This document shows, piece by piece, positions 5,556-46,773 of a stretch of 46,773 bases of DNA (positions are counted from its first letter, which is position 1; the number at the start of each line of letters is the position of its first letter). The position numbers and the translations under genes were made by a program. The DNA is from a virus: positions 1 to 46,773 of IMG/VR virus record IMGVR_UViG_3300046642_001423; one strand, given 5' to 3'. The notes under the pieces are model-generated. The model saw nothing but the letters and a program-made list of their open reading frames with translations, ran no database searches and had not been told where the DNA came from.

Positions 5556-6289
5556 CGGGTCCTCCCTGGTCGCTTGAAGATCAACAGTTTCGACGGCCGC
5601 GCGTGCGCGTGTTGTTGCACGCTCGGGACGCGCCCGCTCTCGGCGCACGCCGCACACGGCCGCTCGTTGTGCCCGTCGATCCATCGCCCGATGCCGCCGC
5701 ACGCGTCACATTTCTTGTCGCGGTCCTTCGGTTGTGGACGACCGCCACCGAGGTACATGAACTCCTCGACTTTCGTCCACCCGGCCATGCGCGCGGTGAC
5801 GTCGTCGCCCATCCACCATTGACGGCCGGACTCGACTTGGTCCTGACATTTGACGAGGAGGAACCGACGCGACACGCGCGCGCACTCCGCCGCGCCGTGG
5901 AGGATCGAGGCGTACCGTTGCTCACGCGAGACGTCGCCGCCGATGCCGTACCGTTCGTCGAACTCACCGAGCGCCGGAGTGCCGTTGAGTTTGTAATCCG
6001 GGTCGAACACGACGGCGTCGAACTTGTGCTCCCACTCGGGCGGGAACTGGCGGTAGTCGAACCGGTAGCCGGGGACCTCGACGTCGCGGTCGTTCGCGAC
6101 GAGCGACGCTGGACGATGCACCTTCCAGAACGTCCCGCGTCCGTACGTCGCGTCGAGGACGTCGCCGTCGAGGTACCCGAGCCGTGCGACCGCCGCGATC
6201 AGATCGCCGTTGCTCATCCACGCGGCGAGCCACCACGGCGCGTCTTTCGCTTTGATCGGACCGCCACACGCGATCACCGGAGTCTCCAT
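5552..6289 (-). CDS. DNA methyltransferase-like protein with zinc-finger tail, 245 aa
   Basis: ATG 6289 overlaps the ATPase stop (TGATG). A class I SAM fold is suggested by VLDATYGRGTFW (44-55, motif I), VANDRD (64-69, acidic end of strand 2) and VVFDPDYKLNG (93-103) in the place of the DPPY motif of N6-adenine/N4-cytosine methyltransferases; the second Pro is Asp. ECARVSRRFLLVKCQDQ fits strand 5. The C-terminus has CDAC (194-197) and CAAC (212-215), a DnaJ-like zinc knuckle. It may methylate phage DNA or be a degenerate binding version. Its place next to the helicase and ParB-like genes fits DNA metabolism. Confidence 0.75.
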   Translation of the reverse strand: METPVIACGGPIKAKDAPWWLAAWMSNGDLIAAVARLGYLDGDVLDATYGRGTFWKVHRPASLVANDRDVEVPGYRFDYRQFPPEWEHKFDAVVFDPDYKLNGTPALGEFDERYGIGGDVSREQRYASILHGAAECARVSRRFLLVKCQDQVESGRQWWMGDDVTARMAGWTKVEEFMYLGGGRPQPKDRDKKCDACGGIGRWIDGHNERPCAACAESGRVPSVQQHAHARPSKLLIFKRPGRTR

Positions 6290-33000: not shown

Positions 33001-33256
33001 ACGCGGACGTACACCCGTCGTTCGCCGCGGACGCGTCGGTCCGGTTCTGATTCTTGACGAGCGTGTAGGTATGACCTTGCGAGTCGGTCGGCGTCGAGAT
33101 CGACGACGCACCCGACGCCCCCGCATTGTCCGCGGCGACCGCGACGACGATCGTGTCGCCCGGTTGGACGTCCTGCCCCAAAATCGAGACGGCGAGCGTC
33201 GCTCCCGCCGACTGATTCCCCGCCGCGTTCGTCGAGAAAGTCGCGGTGATCGTCAC
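30050..33256 (-). CDS. Very large glycine-rich repeat virion protein, 1068 aa
   Basis: The N-terminal 230 residues are a beta-rich adhesin-like domain (GDTIVVAVAADNAG, DSITGNFSPNTTAKVVAYQV). Two related glycine-rich blocks follow, each begun by SGTV(R/H)TYT and ETPPGGD, then VECWG, and ending GGAYAA; they resemble glycine-rich tail-tip adhesin domains. Around them run short Asp-rich repeats with the core DxDxGxxVDxxE, nine in a row at the C-terminal side. The end has a hydrophobic stretch (VLVLLGITLGGVLVYLG) and repeats GLGPSAAGTVGLAPGAAG. It probably decorates the head or neck or binds host surface. Placement between head and connector genes, not after the tape measure, is unusual. Confidence 0.7.
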   Translation of the reverse strand: MTITATFSTNAAGNQSAGATLAVSILGQDVQPGDTIVVAVAADNAGASGASSISTPTDSQGHTYTLVKNQNRTDASAANDGCTSALYVTRCTKAMGVVAGDSITGNFSPNTTAKVVAYQVFRGAEDVAYSTNGVSGSGSAYNGSNTATASLASGDLVVCAVAVESNTVAVKDSDTTNGSWVAVTGASGGGGADTTKMSLSMQYKIATGAGTQTCSGSCTATSNAIGWGLFTVPVTKSDTETGACVDTESVNTGAQPSDSDTGSAVDGGESVTVTNFIGPDDDPAAAVDGGETLAESFSDGDLGAGMESPSRPLVFATGDSPSQAVYATAGFTGNDGSVGGGATAAGTSDTSNVAGQYRHFAGGGDAGTATTGGTGGGGAGSGASGAPGSGGGAGGSGGTVVGYAGTGGAGGNGGTGGAAGVNGTAATTPGGGGGGGGAGATTGGAGAAGQVRFSYFPSGTVRTYTTGSNATETPPGGDTIVVVECWGGGAPGGAGAVGQAGGGGMGGAYAASVVPIATIAAGTIRYTVGGPSTSSRAYWTDTGSSLNAAITAGDVNIGPTVAWAAGGAGAGISTSTGAAGGAAASCVGTTTFSGGRGGDGTVGTGNQAGGGGGSSAGSGGVGGDGTGTAGGVPPAGGGAGGAGGAAGLGTGSNGSGPGGAGGGGGSTNVGTGGGGAGAGGQVKFTYSPSGTVHTYTGNAAQLTETPPGGDTSVLVECWGCGGGAARGLANNFGGAGGGGGAYAATTIDLVARPGPFLYTNTLVGGNFSATINGGAPAFVTFSTPERGELGSVAVFNPIGPDDDPGSGADAGESIAAALIDNDPAVSVDTESVDTGGTTTPISDADTGSGVDGGEALSVAVSDDQPASGTDGGETVASALTDAESGIAVDTEAASVATSDPDTGTVVETEAVAAALSDADVGFGVDVEAITRALNDADTGTGDDVAAISVLLVDTDLGTVVEVALLTATVTDTDAAVVIAELATIAAALTDDDTATGDDAGSVLVLLGITLGGVLVYLGPIARGEVGLGPSAAGTVGLAPGAAGESGLGPRPGGESGPGNGPGGAVSSP
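30242..30736 (-). repeat. Nine tandem 18-19-codon Asp-rich repeats
   Basis: Within the 1068-aa gene, nine consecutive units of 18 or 19 codons align, such as ISDADTGSGVDGGEALSVA, LSDADVGFGVDVEAITRA and LNDADTGTGDDVAAISVL. The core D-x-D-x-G resembles a calcium-binding loop. Units nearer the C-terminus are more degenerate (TVTDTDAAVVIAELATI). Confidence 0.75.
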
Positions 33257-34358: not shown

Positions 34359-35033
34359 TTAGGACGCGGAGCCCGGAATGTTGATGTACCCGATCGTCGG
34401 CGCGCACACCGGGAGCGCGACGTCGTCGATCTCCGCGTAACACCATGACGTGATCCCCGTCATTACGTCGGCGTCACCGAACGGACCGTCACCCCAGTTG
34501 TTGTTCGCCGTCGCGAACCCGTCGAACACCGGGAGCGCGACGTCGTTCTGGCGGGTGAAACCCTTTGGGGTGAGCCAACACCGCGGGAGAATCGCCCGCT
34601 GGTACGGCTGATTCGCGAGCGGGACGTCACAGTCCCATTGCTCCGACCACAACTCGATCGACACGCCGTTCCCGAGGGTCGAGCCACCACACCCCGCCGA
34701 CGTTTTGACGGCGTGGCCGACGACGACTTGTCCGAGCGTGACGTTCTTCGACACGCCGACGATCTCGTTCAACCGGTAGTCGGAGCGGCACATCGTCAAC
34801 GTGAACGTCGCGCGCTTGGTGCGGTCCGGCTTCTTGCGGACGACACACGCGTTCCCCGACGCGTCCTCGACGAACATGTCGGCGCCGTTCTCGATCTCGA
34901 AGTCGTGTTGGAACGACGAGATCCCACCGCACAGGAGGAACCCTCCGAGCGGGTTGTTGAAATCGGGCGACCCGTCGGTGCCCAGCTTCGCGATGCGGAC
35001 GGCGACGGCTCCGATGATGGATGCGGGACCCAT
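34359..35033 (-). CDS. Tail tube (major tail) protein candidate, 224 aa
   Basis: ATG 35033 follows a strong ribosome site (AGGAGGTCGTC). The pattern VRIAKLGTDGSPDFN, SFQHDFEIENGADMF, KKPDRTKRATFTLTMC and RSDYRLNEIVG resembles tail-tube proteins, with a Cys-x-x-Asp block after the conserved strand as in actinophage major tail proteins; the length also fits. The usual place of this gene, between tail terminator and chaperones, is empty in this phage. An alternative is a head decoration protein. Confidence 0.5.
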   Translation of the reverse strand: MGPASIIGAVAVRIAKLGTDGSPDFNNPLGGFLLCGGISSFQHDFEIENGADMFVEDASGNACVVRKKPDRTKRATFTLTMCRSDYRLNEIVGVSKNVTLGQVVVGHAVKTSAGCGGSTLGNGVSIELWSEQWDCDVPLANQPYQRAILPRCWLTPKGFTRQNDVALPVFDGFATANNNWGDGPFGDADVMTGITSWCYAEIDDVALPVCAPTIGYINIPGSAS

Positions 35034-35042
35034 GACGACCTC

Positions 35043-35204
35043 CTACTTTCCTCGGGCGAACTGCCCGGGTAGTTCTTGGACTCGGCGGACGGGACGCGCT
35101 GGCATGGATGCCAACGCGGCCGTGTCGATGGCTTGCTGGTCGATAACGCGCGGTTGTGCCTTCGTCCCGTAACTCGGGTTCGCGCCCTTGCAGTTGCAAC
35201 CCAC
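35043..35204 (-). CDS. Small head-region protein, 53 aa
   Basis: GTG 35204 shares its G with the upstream stop (TAGTG), the same junction type as at the tape measure. Starts VGCNCKGANPSYG, a CxC motif, followed by a helix and a basic end (RPVRRVQELPGQFARGK). No family recognised. Its stop lies 9 nt before the tail-tube candidate. Confidence 0.65.
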   Translation of the reverse strand: MGCNCKGANPSYGTKAQPRVIDQQAIDTAALASMPARPVRRVQELPGQFARGK

Positions 35205-36109
35205 TACGAGACCTCCGCCAACGTCACCGGCGATTTGACCTTCGTGGCGAACACCTTGCACGGATCGAACCGGACGATCGCCTGACGTTCGCCCCACAAC
35301 TCGTACAGGTTCGTTCGTGCCGGACCGACGGTACGGTCCGCCTCCTCCTCGGGGACCACGATCACCGGCGATACCGCGTACTCGACGGGACCGGTGACGT
35401 ACAGCCACGCCTCGTCGGCAGCGTTCCCGAGGAACGGACCACCGACGGGACCGGGACCGTACCCGCCCGCACCGGTGGCGCTTTGGCCGATCGGATAGCC
35501 GGGACCGGGGACGACGACCGATCCGAGCGGACCGCGGTAGATGTTGCCCTCCGGCCAACAAATCCGGGCGCCACCCGCACCGCCACCGAGCGCGTACACC
35601 GAGAGATGCGACGGCATATGGATGAGTGCGCCACCCTCACCGTCGGTACCGAGTTCGTAGTGCGCGAGGAGTTGCGCGACGGCGTCGTCGAGATCGGTCG
35701 TCGCGACCGCGCCGACGTCGAACGCCGAGTTCCGCAACGTCGGGAGTGCCGTGTCGGACGCGAGGAGACCCGAGCCCATCCACAACGCCTCCGCGATCGC
35801 CTTCGCGGTGTGCGTCTCGGTGAGCGCGCGTGCGGCCGGTTCCAAATCCGCGAGGTTGACCTCGCCCGCGAACCGGTCGCACAACAACGGCGTGTAGATC
35901 CGAAACGGCACCGTGTGCGCGGTTGCCCGCACGTTCGCGGCGGTGCGCTCGACGCCACCCGAACAGAACTCGTTGACGTACGTCGGTTGGCACGCGGGCG
36001 TCCACGACACCCCCGTCGACCAGTTCAGATCCGGCAACCGACCCGACGACGTGAGGAGCGACGGTGACGGTGCTACCGGGTCGATCCGTGGTGCTGGCTG
36101 GTAGCTCAT
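35204..36109 (-). CDS. Structural protein directly after the major capsid, 301 aa
   Basis: ATG 36109 follows GGAGAGGAGCGACG. The protein carries WTPACQPTYVNEFCSGG near residues 36-52, a helical centre (LADLEPAARALTETHTAKAI, LDDAVAQLLAHYEL) and a beta/Gly-rich C-terminus (LGGGAGGARICWPEG, VEYAVSPVIVVPEEE). Proteins of this size and cysteine pattern follow the capsid gene in several actinophages and are found in virions, but I cannot assign a fold. A head-stabilising or portal-vertex role is possible. Confidence 0.6.
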   Translation of the reverse strand: MSYQPAPRIDPVAPSPSLLTSSGRLPDLNWSTGVSWTPACQPTYVNEFCSGGVERTAANVRATAHTVPFRIYTPLLCDRFAGEVNLADLEPAARALTETHTAKAIAEALWMGSGLLASDTALPTLRNSAFDVGAVATTDLDDAVAQLLAHYELGTDGEGGALIHMPSHLSVYALGGGAGGARICWPEGNIYRGPLGSVVVPGPGYPIGQSATGAGGYGPGPVGGPFLGNAADEAWLYVTGPVEYAVSPVIVVPEEEADRTVGPARTNLYELWGERQAIVRFDPCKVFATKVKSPVTLAEVS

Positions 36110-36160: not shown

Positions 36161-38014
36161 CTAGCTGGTGAGGCAACCGTTCGGAGCGACGAGCCCGGCG
36201 CGTGAACCGTCGGCGCACAACTTGACGTCGATGTTCGCCCACGGCTGCGCGCCGTTCTTCTCCAACATGAAGAACCGCTCCGTGAAGTACCCGGTCCGGT
36301 TTTGGCGGACCATGTTCGCGTCGCGGAGGACTCCGGCGTTGACCTCGCCCGTCGTGGCGTAGATCGCGGCGGACGGGTCGACGAGACGCATCCGGTACAC
36401 ACCACCGGAGATGTACGGCACCGCGCCGCGTTGCGCCTCGACACCGACCGACGGGAGCGGGTCCGCGAACGTGCCGGGCTCACCACCGAGCGACGGGTCG
36501 AGCGACACGACGATCCGGGCGACGCCTTCCAACGAGGCGGCGAGGATTTGCAACACGTCGGCCGAGTCCATCTCGTCGCCGTACGCACGGTTCGCCTTGT
36601 CGATGGCGAGGATCTGCAACACGCCGGGAGGGAGGATCAAGTCCAGGTTGTTCGGCGCGATGCGGTTCCACCACGTCAACTGCGGGACGAGGGAGTTGAT
36701 CGCCTCGATCAACGCGGGGAGTGCGCCGTAGTCGCCGGTGAAGCGGAACGGGTGCGACAACGCGTCGATCCGTTGGAGGATGCGACCCTCGTACGTCCGT
36801 GCCGACAACGCGTCGACCGCGTTGTTCAGGTTCCGGACACGCTCCGGGTTCGACATTTCGAGCGTGTTGTCGAACGTGACGCACTCGACGATCGCCTCCA
36901 CGACGGCGCTTTGCGTCGGCGGGCACACGAACGTCTTGCACGGCTTCCACGTCGACGCGGTGGCGACGTCGACGGCCGCCTGATTCGCCTCGTTCCACAA
37001 CGTGATCGCGCCGGTCACGTCCGCGAGTTGACCCGAGACGGTGAACTGCCAACCGCCGCGACCCGCGGGACGTGACGGGAACAGATCCGCGACGGGAGTG
37101 TTCGTCGCGAACGCGTCGGGAATGTCGCGGATGATGTCGAGCGGCCCGCAAATCGCGGCGGTGCGGGCACCGGCGACCTGTGCGGCGTCGCGACCCTCAC
37201 GGACGAGTGCCCGCCAGTCGTCCTGCGCCTCACGGATGAGCCGGTCGTTCACGGTCGCACCGTTGTCGCCCGAGAGGAGATCGGGGAGCCCCTCCGGGTC
37301 CGACGCGAACGACGGGATCGACGCGAGGATCGCCTGTCCCTCGCGGCCGGTTTTGGCGCGGTCGATGATGTACCCGAGGTCGTCGAGGGTGATCTCGGAA
37401 CCCATCGGCCGGACACCGTTCTCCGCGGCGGCGAGGAGCGCGGCGCGGGGACGAGTCGCGACGGGTGCGGGCGGCTGTTGCGCGGCCGGAGCCTGCGCGC
37501 CGGACGTTCCCGCCCGGATCGACGCGAGTTGCGCCGCGGACGCGTTCGCACCGGCGAGGACGGGTGCAGGCTCCGGCAGCGCGGCGGGCGGCGCGGCGTC
37601 GAGAGCGGCGAGGTCCTCGACGGTTTGCGCCTCGACGGCACGGCGGCGCTCGATCTCGACACCGATGCGACTCATCTCCGCGAGCGCGTGGCGGACACCG
37701 TCGACGTCGAGACGTTCCCGGGCGGCGGCGCGGAACGTGTCGAGGTCGGCGTGGAGAGCGCGGAGGTCCGCCTCGTCGGCCGCCTCGATCGGCTCACCAT
37801 CGGCGGGGACCTCGGGCGCGACGGTCGGGTCCGGCTCCGCGGGCTCGGCGGGCGCGGCGGCCGGGTCGGCGGCCGGAGCGGGATCGGCGGCCGGTGCGGC
37901 CGGGTCGGGCTCGTCGCCGTCACCACCGGACGGGAGAGGCATCCACCGGCCGTTGTGGAGGACGTGGTCCCGGCCGTCGATGGAACTGATGTGGAGGTCG
38001 TCGTGAAGGTTCAT
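36161..38014 (-). CDS. Major capsid protein with long N-terminal extension, 617 aa
   Basis: ATG 38014 is preceded by GGGGAGA. Residues 30-75 are Pro/Ala/Asp-rich, 77-140 form a likely coiled coil (LRALHADLDTFRAAARERLD, VEIERRRAVEAQTVEDL), 140-190 are another Pro/Ala linker, and the HK97-type capsid domain begins near residue 195: LGYIIDRAKTG, GPLDIIRDIPDAFATN, GWQFTVSGQLADV, then CVTFDNTLEMSNPERV and PNNLDLILPPGVLQILA. HK97-fold capsids are about 280-320 aa, so the first half is an attached scaffold (delta-like) domain probably removed by the protease at 39712. Its promoter must lie at 38015-38230 or come through the plus-strand island. Confidence 0.85.
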   Translation of the reverse strand: MNLHDDLHISSIDGRDHVLHNGRWMPLPSGGDGDEPDPAAPAADPAPAADPAAAPAEPAEPDPTVAPEVPADGEPIEAADEADLRALHADLDTFRAAARERLDVDGVRHALAEMSRIGVEIERRRAVEAQTVEDLAALDAAPPAALPEPAPVLAGANASAAQLASIRAGTSGAQAPAAQQPPAPVATRPRAALLAAAENGVRPMGSEITLDDLGYIIDRAKTGREGQAILASIPSFASDPEGLPDLLSGDNGATVNDRLIREAQDDWRALVREGRDAAQVAGARTAAICGPLDIIRDIPDAFATNTPVADLFPSRPAGRGGWQFTVSGQLADVTGAITLWNEANQAAVDVATASTWKPCKTFVCPPTQSAVVEAIVECVTFDNTLEMSNPERVRNLNNAVDALSARTYEGRILQRIDALSHPFRFTGDYGALPALIEAINSLVPQLTWWNRIAPNNLDLILPPGVLQILAIDKANRAYGDEMDSADVLQILAASLEGVARIVVSLDPSLGGEPGTFADPLPSVGVEAQRGAVPYISGGVYRMRLVDPSAAIYATTGEVNAGVLRDANMVRQNRTGYFTERFFMLEKNGAQPWANIDVKLCADGSRAGLVAPNGCLTS

Positions 38015-38230: not shown

Positions 38231-38524
38231 ATGACCTCAACGCTGAACCTCATCGACGGGACCACCCTCCGGACCTCCTCGGTCCACCGATTCCAGATCG
38301 TCGCGAGCGGGCGCATCGTCGGCCGGTCCGACTCCCTCCGCACCGCAACGGCTCGGGCGGCCAAGCTCGGCTCGTACTCGACGGATCAGGGTCGGGTCGA
38401 CGAGATCAAGGCGGCGTTTGCGGCCGGGACGATGCGGACGGCGGACTACACGGCCGCGATGGACTCGATCCCCCGTCTCCCCGTCGCCGTGGTCTACGAC
38501 CTCGACACCGGCGCTCCCGCCTAA
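38231..38524 (+). CDS. Moron-island hypothetical protein, 97 aa
   Basis: ATG 38231 coincides with the predicted transcription start; no Shine-Dalgarno exists, so it is probably leaderless. The product (MTSTLNLIDGTTLRTSSVHR, then FQIVASGRIVGRSDS, RVDEIKAAFAAGTMRTADY) is small, beta then helix, without cysteines or membrane segments. A terminator hairpin follows the stop. Orientation is opposite to the head genes on both sides. Function unknown. Confidence 0.75.
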   Translation: MTSTLNLIDGTTLRTSSVHRFQIVASGRIVGRSDSLRTATARAAKLGSYSTDQGRVDEIKAAFAAGTMRTADYTAAMDSIPRLPVAVVYDLDTGAPA

Positions 38525-38547
38525 CCCCGAGAGGAGGTTCGACCCGG

Positions 38548-38572
38548 ACGACCCGCCCGAGTGGCGGGTCGT
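38548..38572 (+). terminator. Hairpin terminator after the 97-aa gene
   Basis: ACGACCCGCC (38548-38557) pairs with GGCGGGTCGT (38563-38572) around CGAGT, a perfect 10-bp stem followed by TTCG. It separates the 97-aa gene from the next promoter. Confidence 0.75.
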
Positions 38573-38602
38573 TTCGCGTCCCGAGAAATCCCCCGTTCCG
38601 CG

Positions 38603-38631
38603 TTGCATTGTGGCGCACGGTGCGCTAGATT
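38603..38631 (+). promoter_or_regulatory. Class B operator promoter for the 113-aa gene
   Basis: TTGCAT (38603-38608), a 17-nt spacer filled by GGCGCAC-G-GTGCGCT (38612-38626), and TAGATT (38626-38631). ATG 38638 follows after 6 nt, placing the start point on the A of ATG. From the operator to the first codons this copies the 38196-38245 segment almost base for base. Confidence 0.75.
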
Positions 38632-38637
38632 GTCCCT

Positions 38638-38979
38638 ATGACCTCAACCGCCACCACCACCGCCACGACCTACCGTTGCTCCTGCGGCGCGTACGTCACC
38701 ACCGCCGACGAGTTCCCGACGTGCGACGCCACCGACGCGTGCGGACTCCTGTTCGACGACGAGGCGGTCCCGACCCTCGCCGTCGGGGACGTCGTCTCCC
38801 TCCACCACGCCAAGGGCAAGAACCGCAAATCCGGCACCGTGACCTACGTCGGCCGGACCCGTTGCCGGATCGAGGTCCCGTACCTCTCCTACGGCCACTC
38901 CGAGACGACCCGCTCGATCTCCGACCCGGACCTCGTCGTCCTCTCCCGCGCCAACCGCCGCGGGGACGTCGCCCGATGA
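38638..38979 (+). CDS. Moron-island zinc-ribbon-like protein, 113 aa
   Basis: Leaderless ATG 38638. The N-terminus holds YRCSCGAYVTTADEFPTCDA followed by DACGLLF, a four-cysteine ribbon; the rest is a beta domain with GDVVSLHHAKGKNRKSG and YVGRTRCRIEVPYLSYG, resembling a small SH3-like fold. The stop overlaps the next gene (ATGA). Possibly a nucleic-acid-binding protein; unproven. Confidence 0.75.
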   Translation: MTSTATTTATTYRCSCGAYVTTADEFPTCDATDACGLLFDDEAVPTLAVGDVVSLHHAKGKNRKSGTVTYVGRTRCRIEVPYLSYGHSETTRSISDPDLVVLSRANRRGDVAR

Positions 38980-39167
38980 TCCACTCGGGCGACGCGGTGA
39001 CGTGCGAGGCGTGCGCGCCGGTGTTCGCCGCCGACGCACGGCAGGCGGAGATCGGCCGCGTCGGTGGTCGAGGCTCGGAGTCGTACCGGCGTGCGTTCGC
39101 CGCTCTCCACGACGCCGAGGCGGCCGTGGCCGCGACGCGCGCCGAGCACGCGGCCGCGACTCGCTAG
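38976..39167 (+). CDS. Moron-island small protein, 63 aa
   Basis: ATG 38976 overlaps the previous stop. Contains TCEACAPVF near the start and then an Ala/Glu helix (DAEAAVAATRAEHAAATR). The stop TAG overlaps the TAG of the convergent methyltransferase within the shared palindrome CTAG at 39164-39167. Unknown function. Confidence 0.65.
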   Translation: MIHSGDAVTCEACAPVFAADARQAEIGRVGGRGSESYRRAFAALHDAEAAVAATRAEHAAATR

Positions 39168-39715
39168 ACGTAGATCACGCCGAGCCCGTACGACCCGGGG
39201 AACTCCTCCGTCGCGCACCCGCCGAGGTCGGCGTACCACCGCATCGCGCGCCGCACCGGGAACGGGTCCTGCGGACCGATCGCCGGTTCGGTCTCCTCCG
39301 GGTGTTCGTTCTCCGTGTCGTGCAACACGATCAACCCGCCCGGCCGGACACGCGGACCGTACGCGGCGAGTTCGGCGCGGGTGTGGTCGTAGTCGTGCGA
39401 CGAGTCGACGAACAACAAGTCGAACGTCTCCGGGACTTGCGCGGCGACGGCCGGGTCGAGGTCGTCACCGACGATCGGGTTCAACCGTGCACGCGGCGGG
39501 AGGAGCCAATCGAGGTCGACGCCGTACACCTGACCGTCGGCCGGGAGGAACGAAAGCCATGCCGCCGTCGAGTGACCCTCACGGACACCGAGTTCGACGA
39601 CGGTGCGGACGTCGTAGTCGACGACAAGGTGCATCATCCGCGGGAAATGGTCCGAGATATCGGACGACGGGTCGGCGGCGACGCGCCGGTACCACTGGCC
39701 GAGGTTCTCGCTCAC
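39164..39715 (-). CDS. Class I SAM methyltransferase (Methyltransf_24-like), 183 aa
   Basis: GTG 39715 overlaps the protease stop (GTGA). Motif I is VVELGVREGHST (39-50), with YGVDLD (64-69) for the second acidic position and LLFVDSSHDYDHT and GGLIVLHDTE for motifs IV-V. This pattern is seen in small-molecule and sugar O-methyltransferases (cephalosporin hydroxylase/CmcI-like group). It sits between protease and capsid genes rather than with DNA enzymes, so it may act with the virion sugar cassette farther upstream. Substrate unknown. Confidence 0.8.
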   Translation of the reverse strand: MSENLGQWYRRVAADPSSDISDHFPRMMHLVVDYDVRTVVELGVREGHSTAAWLSFLPADGQVYGVDLDWLLPPRARLNPIVGDDLDPAVAAQVPETFDLLFVDSSHDYDHTRAELAAYGPRVRPGGLIVLHDTENEHPEETEPAIGPQDPFPVRRAMRWYADLGGCATEEFPGSYGLGVIYV

Positions 39716-40023
39716 CCCGCCGCGGGAGGCAACGCCGACGCGGTCGTCGCGGGCGAACCCGAGACGGCGTCGATCAACTGGCGGACGACGTCCTCCAACT
39801 GTGCGACGCGTTGTTCCAGATCGTCCATGCGGGACGTCTCGGCCGCCTCGTCCTCGGGCGACTCCGGCGCGGCCGCGGGTGGCGCCCCGTTCGGGGACGC
39901 CGCGGTACGCGCGAGCACGTCGGCCGCGGCGGTGTTCGCCGGGTGCGCGCCGGGCGGAGCGAGCGCGGGCGGGATCGTCATCGTGACACCGTTCGGAAGG
40001 TCGATCACTACGTTCGTGTCCAT
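39712..40023 (-). CDS. Nested in-frame scaffold protein, 103 aa
   Basis: ATG 40023 lies inside the protease gene in the same frame and is preceded by AGGAG with a 6-nt spacer (AGGAGAACACG). The product would be the last 103 residues of the protease protein: MDTNVVIDLPNGVTMTIPP, an Ala/Pro linker and the coiled coil near the end. This copies the lambda C/Nu3 plan, where the scaffold is made from an internal start of the protease gene. Predicted, not shown. Confidence 0.55.
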   Translation of the reverse strand: MDTNVVIDLPNGVTMTIPPALAPPGAHPANTAAADVLARTAASPNGAPPAAAPESPEDEAAETSRMDDLEQRVAQLEDVVRQLIDAVSGSPATTASALPPAAG

Positions 40024-40770
40024 CGTGTTCTCCTGATCGTCGAGTTGGATACCGCCGACACCACCGAGCACCGCGGCGGCGCGTGCGCCCGGGAGAGTGA
40101 ACCGTCGGACGAGCGGCAACGCCGGACGGGTGACCAACGTCGGTCCGATGCAATCGAAACCCTCGCACTCGCGGACGGCGGCTTGACGGATGCCGAACGC
40201 CTCCCACCACGCGGGAGCCATCGGCCGCCAATCGCCCGACGTCGCGGATCGGCGGAGGAGCGCGACGTCGCCGTAGTTCAACGGCCGCCGTTCCGCTCCG
40301 ACTTGCGCGAGGACCGCGCCGAGGATCACGCCGCCGACGTCGTCGTCGTAGGCGCGCACCGTGAGGAGTTGCTTCGCCGGGTTGGAGTAGTGAGCGAGCG
40401 CGTCGACGACCGACGCGTACGGGTCCGCGTGTCCGCCGACGTCACCGATCACGCCGACCGCGAGCGGTTCACCCGACGCGGTCACGACCTCCTGCTGGTG
40501 GAACGCCGCATATCCCGTCGGGCTCGGGCGCGGACACGCGCTCGCGTCGTGAACGAGACATTGGCCGTGGTGGTAGAAGTACCCCGCGACGCGGCCTTGT
40601 TCGTCGACGGAGAGCTTGGTCTCCGGCGTGAGCCATTCCGGTCGGTCGGTGTACCACTCAGCAGGCGGATAGGCGGGCACCGGGAACGCGGCGTCGAACG
40701 GCTCCGTCAATGCGGCAACCCGCGGAGTCGGGAGCGTCGGTGCGGTCGTCGAACAGGTGCAGTCGCCCAT
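39712..40770 (-). CDS. Capsid maturation protease with C-terminal scaffold part, 352 aa
   Basis: Residues 45-185 match the prohead serine protease family of actinophages: LSVDEQGRVAGYFYHHGQC (53-71), GVIGDVGGHAD (106-116) with His 114, ALAHYSNP (124-131), VRAYDDDVGGVILGAVL (138-154) and LLRRSATSGDWR (171-182) with Ser 175 as nucleophile. Residues 250-352 are a separate low-complexity part with a coiled coil (MDDLEQRVAQLEDVVRQLID). An internal ATG with its own ribosome site begins that part. ATG 40770 has no Shine-Dalgarno; TACCAT lies 9 nt upstream, so a nearly leaderless start is possible. Confidence 0.82.
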   Translation of the reverse strand: MGDCTCSTTAPTLPTPRVAALTEPFDAAFPVPAYPPAEWYTDRPEWLTPETKLSVDEQGRVAGYFYHHGQCLVHDASACPRPSPTGYAAFHQQEVVTASGEPLAVGVIGDVGGHADPYASVVDALAHYSNPAKQLLTVRAYDDDVGGVILGAVLAQVGAERRPLNYGDVALLRRSATSGDWRPMAPAWWEAFGIRQAAVRECEGFDCIGPTLVTRPALPLVRRFTLPGARAAAVLGGVGGIQLDDQENTMDTNVVIDLPNGVTMTIPPALAPPGAHPANTAAADVLARTAASPNGAPPAAAPESPEDEAAETSRMDDLEQRVAQLEDVVRQLIDAVSGSPATTASALPPAAG

Positions 40771-41225: not shown

Positions 41226-41897
41226 CTATGCGACCTCGTCGACGAGTGCGCGCATCCGGACCGGGTCGTCGAACGCGAACCGGTACCGGCGTCGCATCGT
41301 CTCGGACTCCAACCGTGGCGACCGTTGTTTCCCGGGCGCGGAGTGCGGGTGCCACAAATGGACGAGACGTTCCGGTGAACGCCACGGCTCACCGAGGAGC
41401 GTCCGGAGTGCCCATCCCCAACAATGGTCCTCGTCGCCCCATCCGAGGAACCGCGGGTCGATCGGGATCGAGTCGTACGTCGAGCGACGTAGAACGCACA
41501 CGCCGCCGCCCTCGACACCGATGTACGGCCACCGCGTCAACTCCGGCGTCATCGGGACGTCGCGGGTTTCGTAGTAGCGCGCCGTCGCCCGTTCCGTCAG
41601 CCGGTAGACCTCGCGGTGTGGGATCGCCCACGCACCACCCGACTCGACGTGCGCGACCGCGAGCCGGAGCGCGGAGAGGTCGACGAGGACGTCGGCATCG
41701 TGAACGACGAGGACGTCCTCCGGTGTCGTCGGAACGATCGCCGCGGAGACGGCGAGAGATTTGCACCACAACTCCGACACGTTCGGCCCGACCAACACCG
41801 GCCACCCGTCGGCGGCGAGACGGCCCGACACGTCCGTCCATGCGCGCGCCCGGTGCTCGTCGTCGGTGGCGAGTGGGACGACCACGACCGCGCTCAT
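41226..41897 (-). CDS. Glycosyltransferase (GT-A, galactosyltransferase C-domain-like), 223 aa
   Basis: ATG 41897 overlaps the stop of the next gene (ATGA). VVVVPLATDDEHRARAW opens the nucleotide-binding fold; VLVVHDADVLV (62-72) carries the DxD-like metal site; PIDPRFLGWGDEDHCW (145-160) matches the GxxxEDxD acceptor-site block of the family 7 C-terminal domain. It is a paralogue of the next gene: both share HDADVLV, the DPRF-GWG-ED block and W/HLWH. Last gene of the cassette begun at 45376. Probably attaches a sugar to a virion glycan. Confidence 0.8.
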   Translation of the reverse strand: MSAVVVVPLATDDEHRARAWTDVSGRLAADGWPVLVGPNVSELWCKSLAVSAAIVPTTPEDVLVVHDADVLVDLSALRLAVAHVESGGAWAIPHREVYRLTERATARYYETRDVPMTPELTRWPYIGVEGGGVCVLRRSTYDSIPIDPRFLGWGDEDHCWGWALRTLLGEPWRSPERLVHLWHPHSAPGKQRSPRLESETMRRRYRFAFDDPVRMRALVDEVA

Positions 41898-42592
41898 CGT
41901 GTCACGACCTCGATCATCGCCTCCCGGTTCCCCACCGCGTCAAGGTACCGCGACGCGAGCGCCTCCGTCTCCCGGCTCCCACGCCGCGGGAGGTCGGTGG
42001 GTTGCGGTTCGTGCCAAAGGTGCCACATCGGCTCCCGCATCCGGAACGCGGGACCGGCGAGAGTGTCGAGCGCCCGAGCAAACGAAATGTCCTCACCGCC
42101 CCACCCGACGAACCGCGGGTCGATGCCACCGACGGCGTCGTACGCGTCTCGGGAGAGGACGACGATCCCGCCTCCGGGTGGTCCCGGGTGCGGGCGTCGT
42201 TCCAACGCGGCTCCGCCGAGATGGTGGTGGGGACCGCGCATCGCGTGGGCGAGGACCGACAACGTCGACGTCCGCGACAACCGGTAGACGTCGCCGTGCG
42301 GTTGCGCCCATGCCCGGCCGACCGTGACGGCCGTAATGCACGCCCCTACTGCCGCGTGAGCGACGAGGACGTCGGCGTCGTGTATGACGAGCCCCGGGGA
42401 CGTTGTGCGCCGTACGGCGGCGTCCACGACCTCGCCTTTCGCCCACGGTCGGGACGGGTCGCCGGGCTCGACGACGATCGGCCACGCGAACCCCGCGGCG
42501 AGCCACTCGACGACGTGGGCGAGCGCCGCGTCCCGGTTCGGGTCACCCGTCGACGTGTACGGGATCACAACCGTAAAGTCGGTCAGGTTCAT
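41894..42592 (-). CDS. Glycosyltransferase, paralogue of the downstream gene, 232 aa
   Basis: ATG 42592 overlaps the methyltransferase stop (ATGA). FTVVIPYTSTGDPNRDAAL at the start, GLVIHDADVLVAH (67-79), and GGIDPRFVGWGGEDISF (155-171) give the same GT-A/galactosyltransferase pattern as the neighbour; MWHLWHEPQPT near the end supplies a further conserved His/Trp block. Tandem copies suggest gene duplication and two related but distinct sugar transfers. Confidence 0.8.
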   Translation of the reverse strand: MNLTDFTVVIPYTSTGDPNRDAALAHVVEWLAAGFAWPIVVEPGDPSRPWAKGEVVDAAVRRTTSPGLVIHDADVLVAHAAVGACITAVTVGRAWAQPHGDVYRLSRTSTLSVLAHAMRGPHHHLGGAALERRPHPGPPGGGIVVLSRDAYDAVGGIDPRFVGWGGEDISFARALDTLAGPAFRMREPMWHLWHEPQPTDLPRRGSRETEALASRYLDAVGNREAMIEVVTR

Positions 42593-43203
42593 GCCCGCTC
42601 GATCACGATCCAATCGTGGCACTCGGCCGGGCGGATCTCCCGCATCGACTCCCGATACGCGGGGATGCGCGTCGCGACGAGGTCGACCATCGCGAGGAGT
42701 TCCGCGAGGTCGCCCTCCGCGATCGTGATCGACTCCGGGTACGTCCATTCGTCGGCCGCGTTGGTCTCGACGTCGAGGAGGAGTGACACGACCGCGATCC
42801 CGTCGGGTGTGAGTTGCTCGTCGAGCGCGCGTGCGAACGTGTCGATCTGCGGGCGGGAGACGTGCGTCAACACCGAGTGGGCGACGATCCGATCGAACCC
42901 GGCCCGTCCCGGCCACCGGAACCGGTCGCCGGAGTAGAACCGGGCGGAGCGCGCGCGGAGGAGATCCGCGAGCGCCGGGTCCTCCGTCCATGCCGCTTCG
43001 CGCAGCCACGCGTTCGGGTCGACACCGCAATACCGGTCGACGTCGAGGTACTCGACGAGTGGCCGGGCGAGATGCAACGCGCCGCACCCGATCTCTAGAA
43101 CCCGATGATCGGGTCGGAGTCCCGAGTCGTGCAGGATCGCGAGTTGCGCGACGCCGGACTCGGGTGTCGTCCCGACGTACTCGACGGCGTCGACGTAGCT
43201 CAT
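42589..43203 (-). CDS. SAM-dependent methyltransferase, 204 aa
   Basis: ATG 43203 overlaps the preceding stop (ATGA). Motif I VLEIGCGALHLARPL (35-49), acid after strand 2 CGVDPN (59-64), then FDRIVAHSVLTHVSRPQ as motif IV and DGIAVVSLLLDVE as motif V. The SVLTHV pattern is that of type 11/23-like methyltransferases acting on small molecules and sugars. It lies between two glycosyltransferase genes and could methylate the transferred sugar. Confidence 0.82.
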   Translation of the reverse strand: MSYVDAVEYVGTTPESGVAQLAILHDSGLRPDHRVLEIGCGALHLARPLVEYLDVDRYCGVDPNAWLREAAWTEDPALADLLRARSARFYSGDRFRWPGRAGFDRIVAHSVLTHVSRPQIDTFARALDEQLTPDGIAVVSLLLDVETNAADEWTYPESITIAEGDLAELLAMVDLVATRIPAYRESMREIRPAECHDWIVIERA

Positions 43204-43739
43204 CGTGCCGCGAGGAGGATCGTCTCGACACCGAACACCGTGTCGGGCGACTCGTACGTCGACGAGCGTGCATCCCACCCGGCGAGCGCGAGCGGCATCA
43301 TCAGATCACGGATACGGAACGAGATCACCGGGACGTCGCCGTAGTCGGGTTCGCGGAACAACACCGCCGTTTCGGTCTCGGCCATCGGTGTGAACAACAC
43401 GATCGCGAGGCGGTGTTGCGCCGACGCGATCGCGTTGTCGAGGATCACGGACCACTCGTCGTTGTGTTCCAAAACGTGACGGAGGACCACGGCCGGGACC
43501 TCGGAACGGTACGTCCGGAGATCGACGACGAAATCCGCGAACGGTGTCGCGGACCCGTCGACGCCGATGTACCGGCATGACGCGGGGAGGTAGTCCGCGA
43601 GCGCGCCGCCGCCGCATCCCCAATCCTCGACCGCGGTCTCGGTCCCGACGAACGCGGCGACGGGTGGGAGTGACGCCCGGCCGTACGACCACCGGTTCGA
43701 CGCGTGACCGTGCGCGTCGTCCCACGCCCCGAGGTTCAC
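43200..43739 (-). CDS. SAM-dependent methyltransferase, 179 aa
   Basis: GTG 43739 overlaps the glycosyltransferase stop (GTGA). VEDWGCGGGALADYLP (37-52) is motif I, YIGVDGSATPF (57-67) the second, and VVLRHVLEHNDEW (84-96) the fourth, followed by RLAIVLFTPM. The CGGG and RHVLEHN pattern occurs in methyltransferases next to glycosyltransferases. A short version of the fold without an extra acceptor domain. Confidence 0.8.
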   Translation of the reverse strand: MNLGAWDDAHGHASNRWSYGRASLPPVAAFVGTETAVEDWGCGGGALADYLPASCRYIGVDGSATPFADFVVDLRTYRSEVPAVVLRHVLEHNDEWSVILDNAIASAQHRLAIVLFTPMAETETAVLFREPDYGDVPVISFRIRDLMMPLALAGWDARSSTYESPDTVFGVETILLAAR

Positions 43740-44494
43740 ACGTATGGCTCGCGCGCGTGCGGCCAGATCCGCAGCCACCGGTTCGCGAGGTAGAACGGCT
43801 CCCCTTGCGCCATGCGACGCGCGGAGACGAACCCCGTCGACCATCGCCGCTCGATCTGATGGAGTCCGTACACACCGGGCTCGACACCGAGACGCCACGC
43901 GACGACCGGCAACGACAACTGATCCTGAAACCCCCACCGTTCGCACTCGTCGAGCCACGCCGCGCCGAGATGCGCCGACTGTTCGGGTGTCCAAATCGCG
44001 GTGCCCGTCGCGTAGAGCCCCCAATGCTCGGGGAAACCCTCCTCGCGGTACGCGGCCATTTGCGCCTCGATCGGGAGGTTCCGGTACCGGGCGTTTTGCG
44101 CTTCCGCCGCGCCCGGGAGACACACCGCCGCCTCGTCGTACACACAATCGCGTCGAGGGTGCGCCCAAAACGCGACGCCGTCATGGACGTAGTCGAGCGC
44201 CTGACGGACGAACCGTGGCTCCGTGATTTGCATGTTCGCGTCGATCCAAATCGCGTGTGACCAATCGCCCAACTCCCACGGCGGCGTCGACTTGTAGACC
44301 TTCGCGGCGAGGTTCGGATGCGCGTGTTTCGGTTCGACGACGTGGACGTCCCACACCGCGGACACGTCGTCGATCTCCGGGTGCGCCTCGCCGTCGGTGA
44401 GGTACACCCAATCGACGTCGACGTCTTGGGCGACTTGCACGCGGGTCCGGTCGTACCCACCGAAGTTCGCCGTGTAGATCACCGTGTCAGCCAT
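43736..44494 (-). CDS. Glycosyltransferase of the DUF616 type, 252 aa
   Basis: ATG 44494 overlaps the small gene stop. The signature is VIYTANFGGYDR (5-16), DWVYLTDG (28-35), HPNLAAKVYKSTPPWEL (59-75) and HAIWIDANMQI (80-90) with the DxN/DxD-like metal site, then FWAHPRRDCVYDEA and WGFQDQLSLPVVAWRLG. DUF616 enzymes are predicted GT-A glycosyltransferases found in polysaccharide loci. Here it works inside the virion cassette; sugar and acceptor are unknown. Confidence 0.82.
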   Translation of the reverse strand: MADTVIYTANFGGYDRTRVQVAQDVDVDWVYLTDGEAHPEIDDVSAVWDVHVVEPKHAHPNLAAKVYKSTPPWELGDWSHAIWIDANMQITEPRFVRQALDYVHDGVAFWAHPRRDCVYDEAAVCLPGAAEAQNARYRNLPIEAQMAAYREEGFPEHWGLYATGTAIWTPEQSAHLGAAWLDECERWGFQDQLSLPVVAWRLGVEPGVYGLHQIERRWSTGFVSARRMAQGEPFYLANRWLRIWPHAREPYV

Positions 44495-44660
44495 GCGTCG
44501 CTTCGTGTTCGTCGACGAGCCGGTTGAACGTCCATTGCCGCGCCGCCGTGGTCGGCTCGTCGGAGCCGTCGTCGTCGACGACGATCTCCGTCCCGCACGT
44601 CTCACAGATGTAGGTCAACGTCGGACCGTCGTCACGCCCGGCATGGCGTTCGGGTTCCAC
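44487..44660 (-). CDS. Small C2H2-like zinc-finger protein, 43-57 aa
   Basis: Overlooked by length. Two starts fit: GTG 44660 (57 aa) or TTG 44618 (43 aa), the latter overlapping the glycosyltransferase stop by two bases. YICETCGTEIVVDDDG gives the cysteine pair and DEHEATHG at the end gives H-x3-H, so a single C2H2-like finger is likely. The stop overlaps the DUF616 start. It is the only non-enzyme in the sugar cassette. Confidence 0.6.
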   Translation of the reverse strand: MEPERHAGRDDGPTLTYICETCGTEIVVDDDGSDEPTTAARQWTFNRLVDEHEATHG

Positions 44661-45376
44661 AACTGGCGGCGGCGCCGGAACAACGCCCGCCCGACGCGAG
44701 TGTTCGCCCGGCCGCGTTCGTAGGTCTCGTCCATCGGTGCGCGGTCGACGTTCGGGTGGTGGTGGCGTACGACCGAGTCGTGCGCGTGTCGGTACGCGTG
44801 GCGGGAACGGGCGGTCTCACACAACTCGTCATCGACGTATTCGTGCGGGTACAACTCGCAATAGATCGTGTGGTCGACGTCGACGCACGCTCCGACGTCG
44901 GCGTACCACCGGGCGACGAGCGAGTGCGTCGAGAGGGTGCCCTCCATCGTGCGCGGATTGCAATCGTCGACGGTGCCGACAACGCCGGTGTGTGTGCGCG
45001 CGTGCGTGTCGCCGCCGAGGTTCGGCACCGTATCGAGGAGCGAGCGGGCGGCGTCGTACCACCCGTCGGTGAACTCGATATCGTCCGCGCCGGTGAACAC
45101 CACCGGCCGGACCGAGCCGCGGTATCCGGCGTTGATTTTGCGGGCGTAGTCGCCCGTCGTGCCGCCCGGCCATTCGACGACGAGAAGCCGGTCGGTGCCC
45201 GGCCGGAGGACGCACTCGGCCAACGGGTTCGCCGCGTCGTCGTCGTCGCGGTTCACGACGTAGATCGCCTCCGCGTCGGGGACCGTCGCGAGGACCGACC
45301 GGGAGAGCCGGTCGAGGTTCGTGGTCCGCCGCCACAACGGCACGACGATGACGAGATCCGAACCCGAGTAATCCAT
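44615..45376 (-). CDS. GT2-like glycosyltransferase, 253 aa, first gene of the sugar cassette
   Basis: ATG 45376 lies 7 nt after a -10 box and has no Shine-Dalgarno, so the cassette probably begins leaderless. The GT-A fold shows as LVIVVPLWRRTTNLDRLSRS (8-27), IYVVNRDDDDA (38-48), RKINAGYRG (79-87) and VVFTGADDIEF (92-102), the last with the metal-binding acids. VDHTIYCELYPHEYVDDELC and SVVRHHHPN near the end fit the acceptor side. It would transfer the first or a branching sugar. Confidence 0.82.
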   Translation of the reverse strand: MDYSGSDLVIVVPLWRRTTNLDRLSRSVLATVPDAEAIYVVNRDDDDAANPLAECVLRPGTDRLLVVEWPGGTTGDYARKINAGYRGSVRPVVFTGADDIEFTDGWYDAARSLLDTVPNLGGDTHARTHTGVVGTVDDCNPRTMEGTLSTHSLVARWYADVGACVDVDHTIYCELYPHEYVDDELCETARSRHAYRHAHDSVVRHHHPNVDRAPMDETYERGRANTRVGRALFRRRRQLWNPNAMPGVTTVRR

Positions 45377-45383
45377 CCCGCGC

Positions 45384-45410
45384 AGACTAGCGCCCGGTGC
45401 GCCGGATCAA
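45384..45410 (-). promoter_or_regulatory. Degenerate class B promoter of the sugar cassette
   Basis: On the minus strand GGCGCAC-C-GGGCGCT (45403-45389) abuts TAGTCT (45389-45384); ATG follows after 7 nt. This is the class B arrangement of 38205 and 38612 with one base changed in the core. TTGATC (45410-45405), overlapping the portal-gene stop, is a possible -35 with a short 15-nt spacer. Confidence 0.55.
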
Positions 45411-46773
45411 CGGGACCCGACGCGGTCGCGTGCCGCGCTCAACACGTCGGCGGTGGATTGGTGCTCGCGGATCGTCGACACGCCCGGCTCCTCCGACGGT
45501 GCGCCGACGTCGGGCACCCATTCGCAGGTACAACCGTCGTGGTCGCCGGGTTGGAACAAATCTCCCTCCGGCCATGCCTCCGTGTTGTAGAGGTCCGGGT
45601 CGGCGTCGGGTGTCGTGGTCGTGAACCCGTCGAGCGCGTCGTGTGGCTCAAAAATCGTGGTCGGTTCGCCGTAGAAGCCGTGAACCCATACGAACGCGGG
45701 CGCGTCGATCGACAACTCCCCGACGATGCGTTCCTCGATCGTCGGCCCGTCGACGTGGATGATGGTCGGCGGCTGGTCGGGTGTCGTCCCGAGGGTGTAG
45801 TTCGCGGTGCCCTCGTTGATCCGGAGCGCGTTCCGCACGAACCGTGCGGCCGCGGCGGAGAGTTCGTTCGGGTCGGGCAACCCGGGGAGTATGTCGCCAC
45901 CCGTCGGCGGTCGACGTCGAGCGCGGGGGATCATCGTCGGGAGCGCCGCGGTCACCGCGGCATGGTCGCCGGTGAGGAGCCGGGCACGAACCGCCGCCGT
46001 CAACGACGCGACGAGGTAGTCGACCGCGCCGGTCGCGTCGGGTTCGTCGGGGATCGCGACGTGGTCGAGCCCGGCGTCGGTGACGAGCGCCCCGACACGT
46101 TCGCGGTACAACGCGAACTCGTCGAGCGCCCGGTCGCGGAACGTGTCGAACGCGTGGCGGAGTAGCTCGTTCTCACGGAGCCCCACGGCCGCACACAACG
46201 GCGCGAGAGGCTCACGACCGGCGACGGCGGTACGAACCTCCGACTGGCGTGCGGCGGACGCCCGGGACCGTGCCCGGTTCGACAGATTCACCCCGGCGCG
46301 TTTCATGGCGTCGTCGTACGCGTGGCGTGCCTCAGCGAGAAGTTTCGTCCCGAGTTGTTGCCGGAGCCGGACCACGCGTTGTACCACTCGCCGTGCCGCG
46401 TCGGCGTCCTGGGCGGACGTCGGGTCGAAAGGGGGCGGCTCCGCCGCGGCCGTGGCGGCGGCGGGAGTCGTCGGTTGCGCGGGTGGTCCGGTCGTGACCG
46501 TCGCGGACGTGACCGACTCGGAGCCGGGTGTCGTCGCGGGTTGCGTCGCGAGGCGGCCGTGTGCGAGGACCTCCAACAGCCACGCCCGCTCCTCCGCGTC
46601 GAGGAGCGCGTCCTCCGCCTCGTACCCGCACGCGTCGAGCGCCCGTTCCCCTTTCAACAACCCGGCGAGGTACAACCGCAACGACAACTCCGTGTTGTCG
46701 GGCGAGATGATTACGTCCGACGGGTCGTACCCGATGCGGAGGTTGTTGAGGTTCTCGACGGGGAACCCCGCGG
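45407..46773 (-). CDS. Portal and MuF-like fusion protein, start outside the window
   Basis: The frame is open to the right edge, adding at least GFPVENLNNLRIGYDPSDVI upstream of the first internal start. The early part (LRLYLAGLLKGERALDACGY, EERAWLLEVLAHGR) resembles the end of a portal protein; a Pro/Thr/Ala linker follows; the rest looks like a MuF/SPP1-gp7 head morphogenesis domain (RVVQRVVRLRQQLGTKLL, DTFRDRALDEFALYRERVG) that ends FVWVHGFYGE and DLFQPGDHDGCTCEWVPD, the HxxCxC-like end of that family. It forms or lines the portal vertex. Portal-MuF fusion is known in actinophages; the portal core itself is not in view. Confidence 0.65.
   Translation of the reverse strand, partial: AGFPVENLNNLRIGYDPSDVIISPDNTELSLRLYLAGLLKGERALDACGYEAEDALLDAEERAWLLEVLAHGRLATQPATTPGSESVTSATVTTGPPAQPTTPAAATAAAEPPPFDPTSAQDADAARRVVQRVVRLRQQLGTKLLAEARHAYDDAMKRAGVNLSNRARSRASAARQSEVRTAVAGREPLAPLCAAVGLRENELLRHAFDTFRDRALDEFALYRERVGALVTDAGLDHVAIPDEPDATGAVDYLVASLTAAVRARLLTGDHAAVTAALPTMIPRARRRPPTGGDILPGLPDPNELSAAAARFVRNALRINEGTANYTLGTTPDQPPTIIHVDGPTIEERIVGELSIDAPAFVWVHGFYGEPTTIFEPHDALDGFTTTTPDADPDLYNTEAWPEGDLFQPGDHDGCTCEWVPDVGAPSEEPGVSTIREHQSTADVLSAARDRVGSR

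What the first reader, a model, noticed from the sequence alone, without database searches (positions are those of the whole stretch)
41226..45376. Seven-gene sugar-decoration cassette inside the head operon
GT2-like, zinc finger, DUF616 transferase, two methyltransferases and two paralogous GT-A transferases are joined by ATGA or GTGA overlaps and sit between portal/MuF and protease genes; a further sugar-type methyltransferase follows the protease. Phage-encoded virion glycosylation is known in mycobacteriophages near structural genes, but four transferases plus three methyltransferases would suggest a methylated oligosaccharide on the capsid or tail. It also has its own promoter.
Basis: partly seen in the sequence, partly recalled or inferred. 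Interest (0 to 1): 0.7.

Follow-up and report, generated by a model that had tools for sequence, protein, structure and literature searches.

The report
Phage gene cassette that sugar-coats virions
This uncultured, probably actinobacterial phage carries a block of sugar-attaching and methyl-adding enzymes inside its head operon that most likely builds a small methylated sugar chain on its own shell and tail proteins, as Corndog- and Che8-type mycobacteriophages are reported to do; the capsid and tail proteins of phages with such blocks nearly always end in serine, which points to where the sugar is attached.

Summary
The cassette is real: four glycosyltransferases (GT2, DUF616/TOD1, two GT7), two methyltransferases and a zinc-finger ORF at 41226-45376, between portal and protease, with a third methyltransferase after the protease. 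The claimed promoter is not found. The GT2 'leader' recurs in at least 166 IMG/VR contigs, usually just after the major capsid gene and followed by other GTs, methyltransferases and GT7, in phages with at least three capsid families. The closest relative, an 87.6 kb contig, carries five of the same enzymes (42-50% identical) between the same head genes and a GT of the Che8 gp110 family, reported essential for capsid glycosylation. The Corndog relative Dylan has methyltransferase and GTs at the same portal/protease position. An unexpected sign supports virion glycosylation: MCPs beside the cassette end in serine (37 of 38 non-redundant) and so do MTPs (26 of 26), against 1 of 45 portals and 0 of 35 scaffolds; two same-family controls agree. 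Che8 and Dylan show it; so do the window's MCP, MTP and a third head protein. Best reading: O-glycosylation of C-terminal serines by phage-encoded cytoplasmic enzymes. A new variant of a known kind; the C-terminal serine rule may be new, but the 2023 primary paper could not be read.

The parts
44615..45376 (-). GT2-type glycosyltransferase, the 'leader' of the cassette family
   Evidence: phrog_14945 2e-4; 45% identical to L116, conserved DD, HEYVDDE and HxHP motifs; AlphaFold2 pLDDT 80.6, GT-A fold, 287 PDB matches at E<=0.001 led by GT2 enzymes
44487..44660 (-). small C2H2 zinc-finger-like ORF (start GTG 44660, or TTG at 44618 overlapping the GT2 stop)
   Evidence: CETCG...HEATH motif; weak PF01096 0.06 and phrog_2210 0.03; no homologue found in the relatives
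43736..44494 (-). DUF616/TOD1_MUCI70 glycosyltransferase
   Evidence: PF04765 1.8e-7 over cut-off; phrog_26101 2e-13; 47% identical to L136 gene in the same cassette; L198 has one next to its leader
43200..43739 (-). class I SAM methyltransferase (MTa)
   Evidence: PF13489 1.5e-4 below cut-off; homologues inside cassettes of L136 (46%), L200 and L129
42589..43203 (-). class I SAM methyltransferase (MTb)
   Evidence: PF13489 6e-10, PF08242 3e-9; 42% identical to L136 7349-7993 in the same cassette
41894..42592 (-). GT7-type glycosyltransferase (GT7a)
   Evidence: PF02709 2e-7, phrog_1721 9e-19; DAD, GWGGED, HLWH motifs; homologous to Dylan gp34 and Che8 gp109
41226..41897 (-). GT7-type glycosyltransferase paralogue (GT7b)
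   Evidence: phrog_1721 1e-9; 38% identical to GT7a with the same motifs
39164..39715 (-). third methyltransferase (MTc), sugar O-methyltransferase type, after the protease
   Evidence: PF13578 9e-16, PF04989 Rhamnosyl O-methyltransferase/CmcI 6e-8; absent from G001
45407..46771 (-). portal protein C-terminus (cut by the contig end), upstream flank
   Evidence: phrog_776 1.5e-8
39712..40770 (-). capsid maturation protease-like protein, downstream flank
   Evidence: phrog_18402 2e-10, phrog_859 9e-18; 537 phage records, nearly all of actinobacteria, match
36161..38014 (-). major capsid protein ending ...APNGCLTS; proposed glycan acceptor at the last Ser (codon 36164-36166)
   Evidence: phrog_777; G001 homologue, 42% identical, ends ...PQGCIS
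34359..35033 (-). major tail protein ending ...NIPGSAS; proposed glycan acceptor at the last Ser (codon 34362-34364)
   Evidence: phrog_792; G001 homologue, 48% identical, ends ...PLPHS
35204..36109 (-). head protein of unknown function ending ...TLAEVS; possible third acceptor
   Evidence: phrog_779; G001 homologue, 45% identical, ends ...SLAAS

Best explanation
The block is a virion-glycosylation cassette. Soluble enzymes made with the head proteins use host nucleotide sugars to build a short O-linked oligosaccharide on phage structural proteins, and methyltransferases then cap or diversify it. The likely acceptors are the C-terminal serines of the major capsid and major tail proteins, perhaps also of the head protein 35204-36109. 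Shown here: enzyme families, operon order, recurrence of the cassette in head operons, homology to GTs of phages with reported glycosylated virions, and the association of a terminal Ser with GT cassettes. Inferred: glycosylation itself, the exact acceptor residue, the order of enzyme steps (GT2 first, GT7 extension, methylation last) and the benefit (shielding, stability or adsorption).
For: 1) The GT2 leader recurs in at least 166 viral contigs. In the 79 loci mapped it follows terminase, portal, protease/MuF, scaffold and usually MCP, and precedes other GTs (GT2b in 50 loci, GT7 in 36), MTs and then connector, tail tube and tape measure genes. 2) The closest relative, G001/L136, has MTb, GT2, DUF616, MTa and GT7a (42-50% identical) between portal (31%) and protease (41%), plus a Che8 gp110-family GT in the same block (5.5e-18). 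3) Dylan (Corndogvirus): portal - O-methyltransferase - hypothetical - GT - GT - protease - capsid; Dylan gp34 and Che8 gp109 match GT7a, and Dylan gp35 matches Che8 gp110 (1e-55). Che8 and Corndog virions are reported glycosylated, with glycans at capsid and tail-tube C-termini (PMC12363180, PMC12619734, citing Freeman 2023). 4) C-terminal Ser: MCP 37/38 and MTP 26/26 non-redundant in cassette loci, against portal 1/45, TerL 0/30, scaffold 0/35, MuF/protease 1/54; Che8, Dylan, prophiGD91-2 and Phendrix MCPs end GS, while TM4 MCP and MTP end AA and SV. 5) Same-family controls: MCP283 GT+ 29/29 Ser against 22/48 GT- (p 1.5e-7; 70% dereplicated p 0.009); MCP10 GT+ 12/13 Ser (the other Thr) against 4/28 GT- with 4 kb downstream (p 2.6e-6; dereplicated p 4e-4). 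6) Two follow-up checks: Ser-ending MCPs without a cassette hit had other GTs right after the MCP in L284 and L283; among 37 relatives by MCP, 8 of 10 with a Ser-ending MCP have a GT in the contig against 4 of 27 others (p 4e-4; dereplicated 0.006). 7) No membrane segments in the cassette.
Against: No glycan was measured, and nothing is cultured. The window itself lacks a Che8 gp110-family GT. Within the window's own MCP family only 4 of 8 cassette-bearing MCPs end in Ser, so the rule is weaker there; 8 of 57 window ORFs end in Ser anyway. Connector proteins also often end in Ser. About half of GT-negative MCP283 relatives end in Ser, and contig ends hide some GTs. Related sequences are not independent.
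Confidence: 0.78

Rival explanations
1. The enzymes modify a host cell-envelope glycan (receptor masking or serotype conversion).
For: Phage GTs are known to do this in temperate phages (cited in PMC12619734); GT-A enzymes acting on polysaccharide acceptors are among the fold matches (TarP, TarS).
Against: No membrane-spanning segment in any cassette protein (max KD 1.79 against 2.93 for a membrane-protein control), so no flippase or membrane GT as in gtr loci; the genes are embedded in the head operon in many phages with different MCPs; the C-terminal Ser association has no explanation here.
Confidence: 0.07
2. The GTs decorate hypermodified phage DNA.
For: The window encodes a TET-associated glycosyltransferase (PF20691, 1.7e-33) at 3210-4025, so this phage may glycosylate DNA.
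Against: That gene lies 37 kb away in another gene block; cassette GTs are homologous to those of Che8 and Dylan, and track with capsid and tail C-termini rather than with DNA genes.
Confidence: 0.05
3. The glycan is put on another virion protein (tail tip, head fibre or a minor capsid protein), and the C-terminal Ser of MCP/MTP is a by-product of surface-exposed, flexible tails.
For: Terminal Ser is also common in connector proteins (adaptor 8/28, terminator 7/22, head closure 7/22); in the window's MCP family only 4/8 MCPs end in Ser.
Against: GT-positive against GT-negative contrasts hold inside two MCP families; reported mycobacteriophage glycans sit on capsid and tail-tube C-termini (PMC12619734).
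Confidence: 0.08
4. A recently acquired, non-functional accessory block.
For: 80 MCP relatives carry no such block near their portal, protease and MCP genes, so it is accessory at family scale; an IS-like ORF sits near it in L136.
Against: All ORFs intact with catalytic motifs; enzymes 42-50% identical to G001 while portal and protease are 31-41%, i.e. kept over the same divergence.
Confidence: 0.02

Closest known systems
Corndogvirus (Corndog, Dylan) virion glycosylation genes
   Same: O-methyltransferase and two GTs directly between portal and capsid maturation protease (Dylan gp32-35); GT7 homologue; MCP and MTP end in Ser
   Different: The window has four GTs and three MTs, including GT2-leader and DUF616 types that no Dylan gene matched; it lacks a gp110/gp35-family GT; structural genes are of another lineage
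Che8-type (Gracegardnervirinae) virion glycosylation: Che8 gp108-110, prophiGD91-2 gp73-80
   Same: Homologous GT7 (Che8 gp109); MCP ends ...TGS and MTP ...DGS; prophiGD91-2 has a GT,GT,GT,MT,MT,GT block just upstream of terminase-portal-protease-MCP
   Different: Che8 genes lie at the right end of the genome; gp110 family absent from the window; enzyme set differs
Gordonia phages Phendrix and GodonK (gp79-80)
   Same: Distant relatives of the window by MCP (25%); two GTs inside the head-tail operon; MCP, gp75 and MTP end in GS
   Different: Only two GTs, placed after the head-tail adaptor; no methyltransferase annotated in the block
gtr serotype-conversion loci
   Same: Phage-encoded GTs
   Different: Membrane flippase and membrane GT expected there; none here

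Membership tests
Mycobacteriophage virion O-glycosylation (Che8/Corndog type) | Glycosyltransferases homologous to those of phages with reported glycosylated virions | tested here: met
   GT7a matches Dylan gp34 (3.8e-15), Che8 gp109 (7.5e-11) and prophiGD91-2 gp75 (2.7e-16)
Mycobacteriophage virion O-glycosylation (Che8/Corndog type) | Member of the Che8 gp110 family, reported essential for capsid glycosylation | tested here: not met
   No gp110/gp35-family hit in the six-frame window; the closest relative L136/G001 does have one in its cassette (5.5e-18). So the claim is 'works like', not strict membership
Mycobacteriophage virion O-glycosylation (Che8/Corndog type) | Genes placed in or next to the head operon | tested here: met
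   Between portal and protease as in Dylan; Che8 itself has them at the genome's right end
Mycobacteriophage virion O-glycosylation (Che8/Corndog type) | Hydroxyl residue at the C-terminus of capsid and tail-tube proteins (pattern defined here) | tested here: met
   Window MCP ...CLTS, MTP ...GSAS; G001 ...CIS and ...PHS
Mycobacteriophage virion O-glycosylation (Che8/Corndog type) | Glycan covalently attached to capsid and tail-tube C-termini | not testable with these tools
   Needs mass spectrometry of virions; phage uncultured
gtr serotype conversion | Membrane flippase and membrane-bound GT | tested here: not met
   No TM-like segment in the cassette
DNA hypermodification by TET-associated GT | PF20691 GT or thymidine/cytosine modification genes in the cassette | tested here: not met
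   PF20691 only at 3210-4025 among the proteins tested, not in the cassette

The most novel reading that the evidence does not exclude
A single serine (or threonine) at the very C-terminus of the major capsid and major tail proteins is the general acceptor and a sequence-readable mark of phage-encoded virion glycosylation. One modular cassette family (GT2 leader first, GT7 last, variable GTs, methyltransferases and epimerase between) serves phages with several capsid families, most of them uncultured, and builds chemically diverse, often methylated glycans.
Probability: 0.55. Interest if true: 0.72.

Novelty: new variant of a known kind. Interest (0 to 1): 0.56.

Why it matters
Virion glycosylation of bacteriophages has been reported for only a few mycobacteriophages. 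The cassette family traced here is common in environmental phage contigs and lies in the capsid operon, so virion glycosylation may be widespread rather than rare. If the C-terminal Ser rule holds, glycosylated virions and the modified residue could be predicted from sequence alone, which makes the question directly testable on phages already in culture collections.

Tried and rejected
DNA-level and single-sequence searches found no close relative; profile searches were needed. Streptomyces jumbo phage GTs (Frankenweenie) match GT7 but lie among replication genes; one Frankenweenie ORF annotated as glycosyltransferase (L007 298-930) aligned as an unrelated sequence and was dropped. The 80 MCP relatives carry no such cassette near the head genes. 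The promoter claim was rejected. Host-envelope and DNA-modification readings were considered and ranked low. Genome contigs gave only three loci, in an Actinomycetes, a Dehalococcoidia and an Acidobacteria MAG, so the host stays a guess. Corndog and L5 records under the accessions tried, and the Freeman 2023 paper, are not held.
Full report
What is there. The window is a complete IMG/VR record of 46,773 bp, about 68% G+C, ending inside the portal gene. On the minus strand the order is portal (C-terminal part) - GT2 - zinc-finger ORF - DUF616 GT - MTa - MTb - GT7a - GT7b - small ORF - protease - MTc - (three small opposite-strand ORFs) - MCP - phrog_779 head protein - MTP - adaptor - tape measure. 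Most enzyme calls rest on Pfam or PHROG matches; GT2 and MTa are weak by sequence. GT2 was modelled: pLDDT 80.6, GT-A fold, best PDB match a GT2 mannosyltransferase with TMq 0.60. MTa is supported by homologues in other cassettes with an invariant DWGxGxG and RHVLEH pattern. Both GT7 paralogues keep the DAD, GWGxED and HLWH motifs. Junctions are mostly 4-nt overlaps as stated; the promoter is not supported.

Is it a chance assembly? No. A profile of the GT2 found at least 166 viral contigs; an independent profile of GT7 found 43 contigs, about half of which have a GT2-leader homologue upstream. Families were built de novo over these loci and labelled. Around the GT2 leader the order is terminase, portal, MuF/protease, scaffold, MCP upstream, and GT2b (50 loci), further GT-A types, Glyco_tranf_2_4 types, methyltransferases, sometimes an NAD-epimerase, GT7 (36 loci), then connector, tail tube and tape measure downstream. 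At least three MCP families flank the same cassette family (phrog_10, phrog_283/267, phrog_777), so it moves between lineages but stays in the head operon. In L115 the leader is even split by an intein-like insert at its HEY-DDE motif.

Closest relative. L136, on the 87.6 kb contig G001, has MTb, GT2, DUF616, MTa and GT7a (42, 46, 47, 46 and 50% identical) between portal (31%) and protease (41%), followed by MCP (42%), the phrog_779 protein (45%) and MTP (48%). The enzymes have been kept over the same divergence as the head proteins. G001 additionally encodes, next to GT7a, a GT of the Che8 gp110 family (5.5e-18).

Link to proven cases. Che8 gp110 and Corndog gp38 are described as the essential GTs for capsid glycosylation, and glycans are reported on the C-termini of capsid and tail-tube subunits of mycobacteriophages (PMC12363180 and PMC12619734, both citing Freeman et al. 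2023, which is not held here). In Dylan, of the Corndog genus, the order is portal - O-methyltransferase - hypothetical - GT - GT - protease - capsid, the same position as in the window. Dylan gp35 belongs to the gp110 family (1e-55) and Dylan gp34 and Che8 gp109 to the window's GT7 family. prophiGD91-2 has a GT,GT,GT,MT,MT,GT block just upstream of terminase-portal-protease-MCP. The window itself lacks a gp110-family member, so it is not a strict copy of that system.

C-terminal serine. Reading the C-termini beside the cassettes gave an unplanned observation: after removal of near-duplicates, 37 of 38 MCPs (five families, one of them assigned by position only) and 26 of 26 MTPs (two families) end in Ser, while portals (1/45), large terminases (0/30), scaffolds (0/35) and MuF/proteases (1/54) do not; connector proteins are intermediate. 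Che8 MCP and MTP end TGS and DGS, Dylan GS and DS, prophiGD91-2 MCP GS, Phendrix MCP and MTP GS; TM4, taken as a presumed negative, ends AA and SV. Controls inside MCP families: MCP283 relatives with a GT 29/29 Ser, without 22/48 (Fisher 1.5e-7; at 70% dereplication 13/13 against 18/29, p 0.009); MTP 11/11 against 13/37 (p 2e-4). A tree of these MCPs, built without the last four residues, needs 12 changes of the GT label (shuffled mean 21.6), so GT presence has turned over several times and is always found with Ser. A second MCP family gave 12/13 Ser (the exception ends in Thr) against 4/28 for loci with at least 4 kb downstream and no GT (p 2.6e-6; dereplicated p 4e-4). Follow-up checks: Ser-ending loci that my cassette models called GT-negative contained other glycan genes after the MCP (GT4 in L284, Stealth-type in L283, FkbM methyltransferase in L269); and among 37 MCP relatives of the window, GT hits fell on 8 of 10 with a Ser-ending MCP but 4 of 27 others. 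In the window the MCP (...CLTS), the MTP (...GSAS) and the phrog_779 protein (...AEVS) end in Ser, and so do all three in G001 although the residues before it differ (CIS, PHS, AAS). For the window alone this is weak, since 8 of 57 ORFs end in Ser, and in the window's own MCP family only 4 of 8 cassette-bearing MCPs do.

Mechanism. Shown: soluble GT and MT enzyme set, operon context, homology, C-terminal association. Inferred: a GT (the GT2 leader, as the most constant member, is my guess for the first step) puts a sugar on the C-terminal Ser of newly made MCP and MTP; DUF616 and the GT7 pair extend it; MTa, MTb and the CmcI/rhamnosyl-MT-like MTc methylate it. No sugar-nucleotide biosynthesis gene was recognised in the cassette, so host NDP-sugars would be used; some relatives add an epimerase. 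The role of the small zinc-finger ORF is unknown.

Host. Not settled. The protease matches are almost all in actinobacteriophages, and one genome hit is an Actinomycetes MAG with terminase and portal on the same contig.

Limits. No chemistry; uncultured; many contigs are fragments; counts are not phylogenetically independent; the GT-negative label is only as good as the models and contig length; the C-terminal rule was noticed in these data before it was tested, although the MCP283 and MCP10 control sets and the GT searches in the MCP relatives were collected afterwards; the primary paper on virion glycosylation could not be read, so the residue it reports is unknown to me.

Noticed in passing
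3210-4025 (with 4022-4729 and 5552-6289): A TET-associated glycosyltransferase (PF20691, 1.7e-33) beside a ParB-like protein and a methyltransferase-like ORF: the phage may also glycosylate its DNA.
   Followed up: partly
L115 3477-4880: The GT2 leader is interrupted by an intein-like insertion exactly at the conserved HEYVDDE motif.
   Followed up: no
L096 2594-9164: A cassette with two GT2s, a possible sulfotransferase-like ORF (no Pfam hit), two methyltransferases, further GTs and GT7 directly after the MCP: the most elaborate variant seen.
   Followed up: partly
L136 5566-6984: An AAA+ ATPase-like ORF lies between portal and the glycosylation cassette in G001.
   Followed up: no
985-1761: ORF with weak similarity to an intein splicing domain (PF14890, 0.03).
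   Followed up: no
30050-33256: 1068-aa glycine-rich repetitive protein between the tail tube region and the adaptor on the minus strand; possible fibre-like protein.
   Followed up: no
38231-39167 (+ strand): Three small opposite-strand ORFs with strong GC3 between MTc and the MCP, inside the head operon.
   Followed up: no
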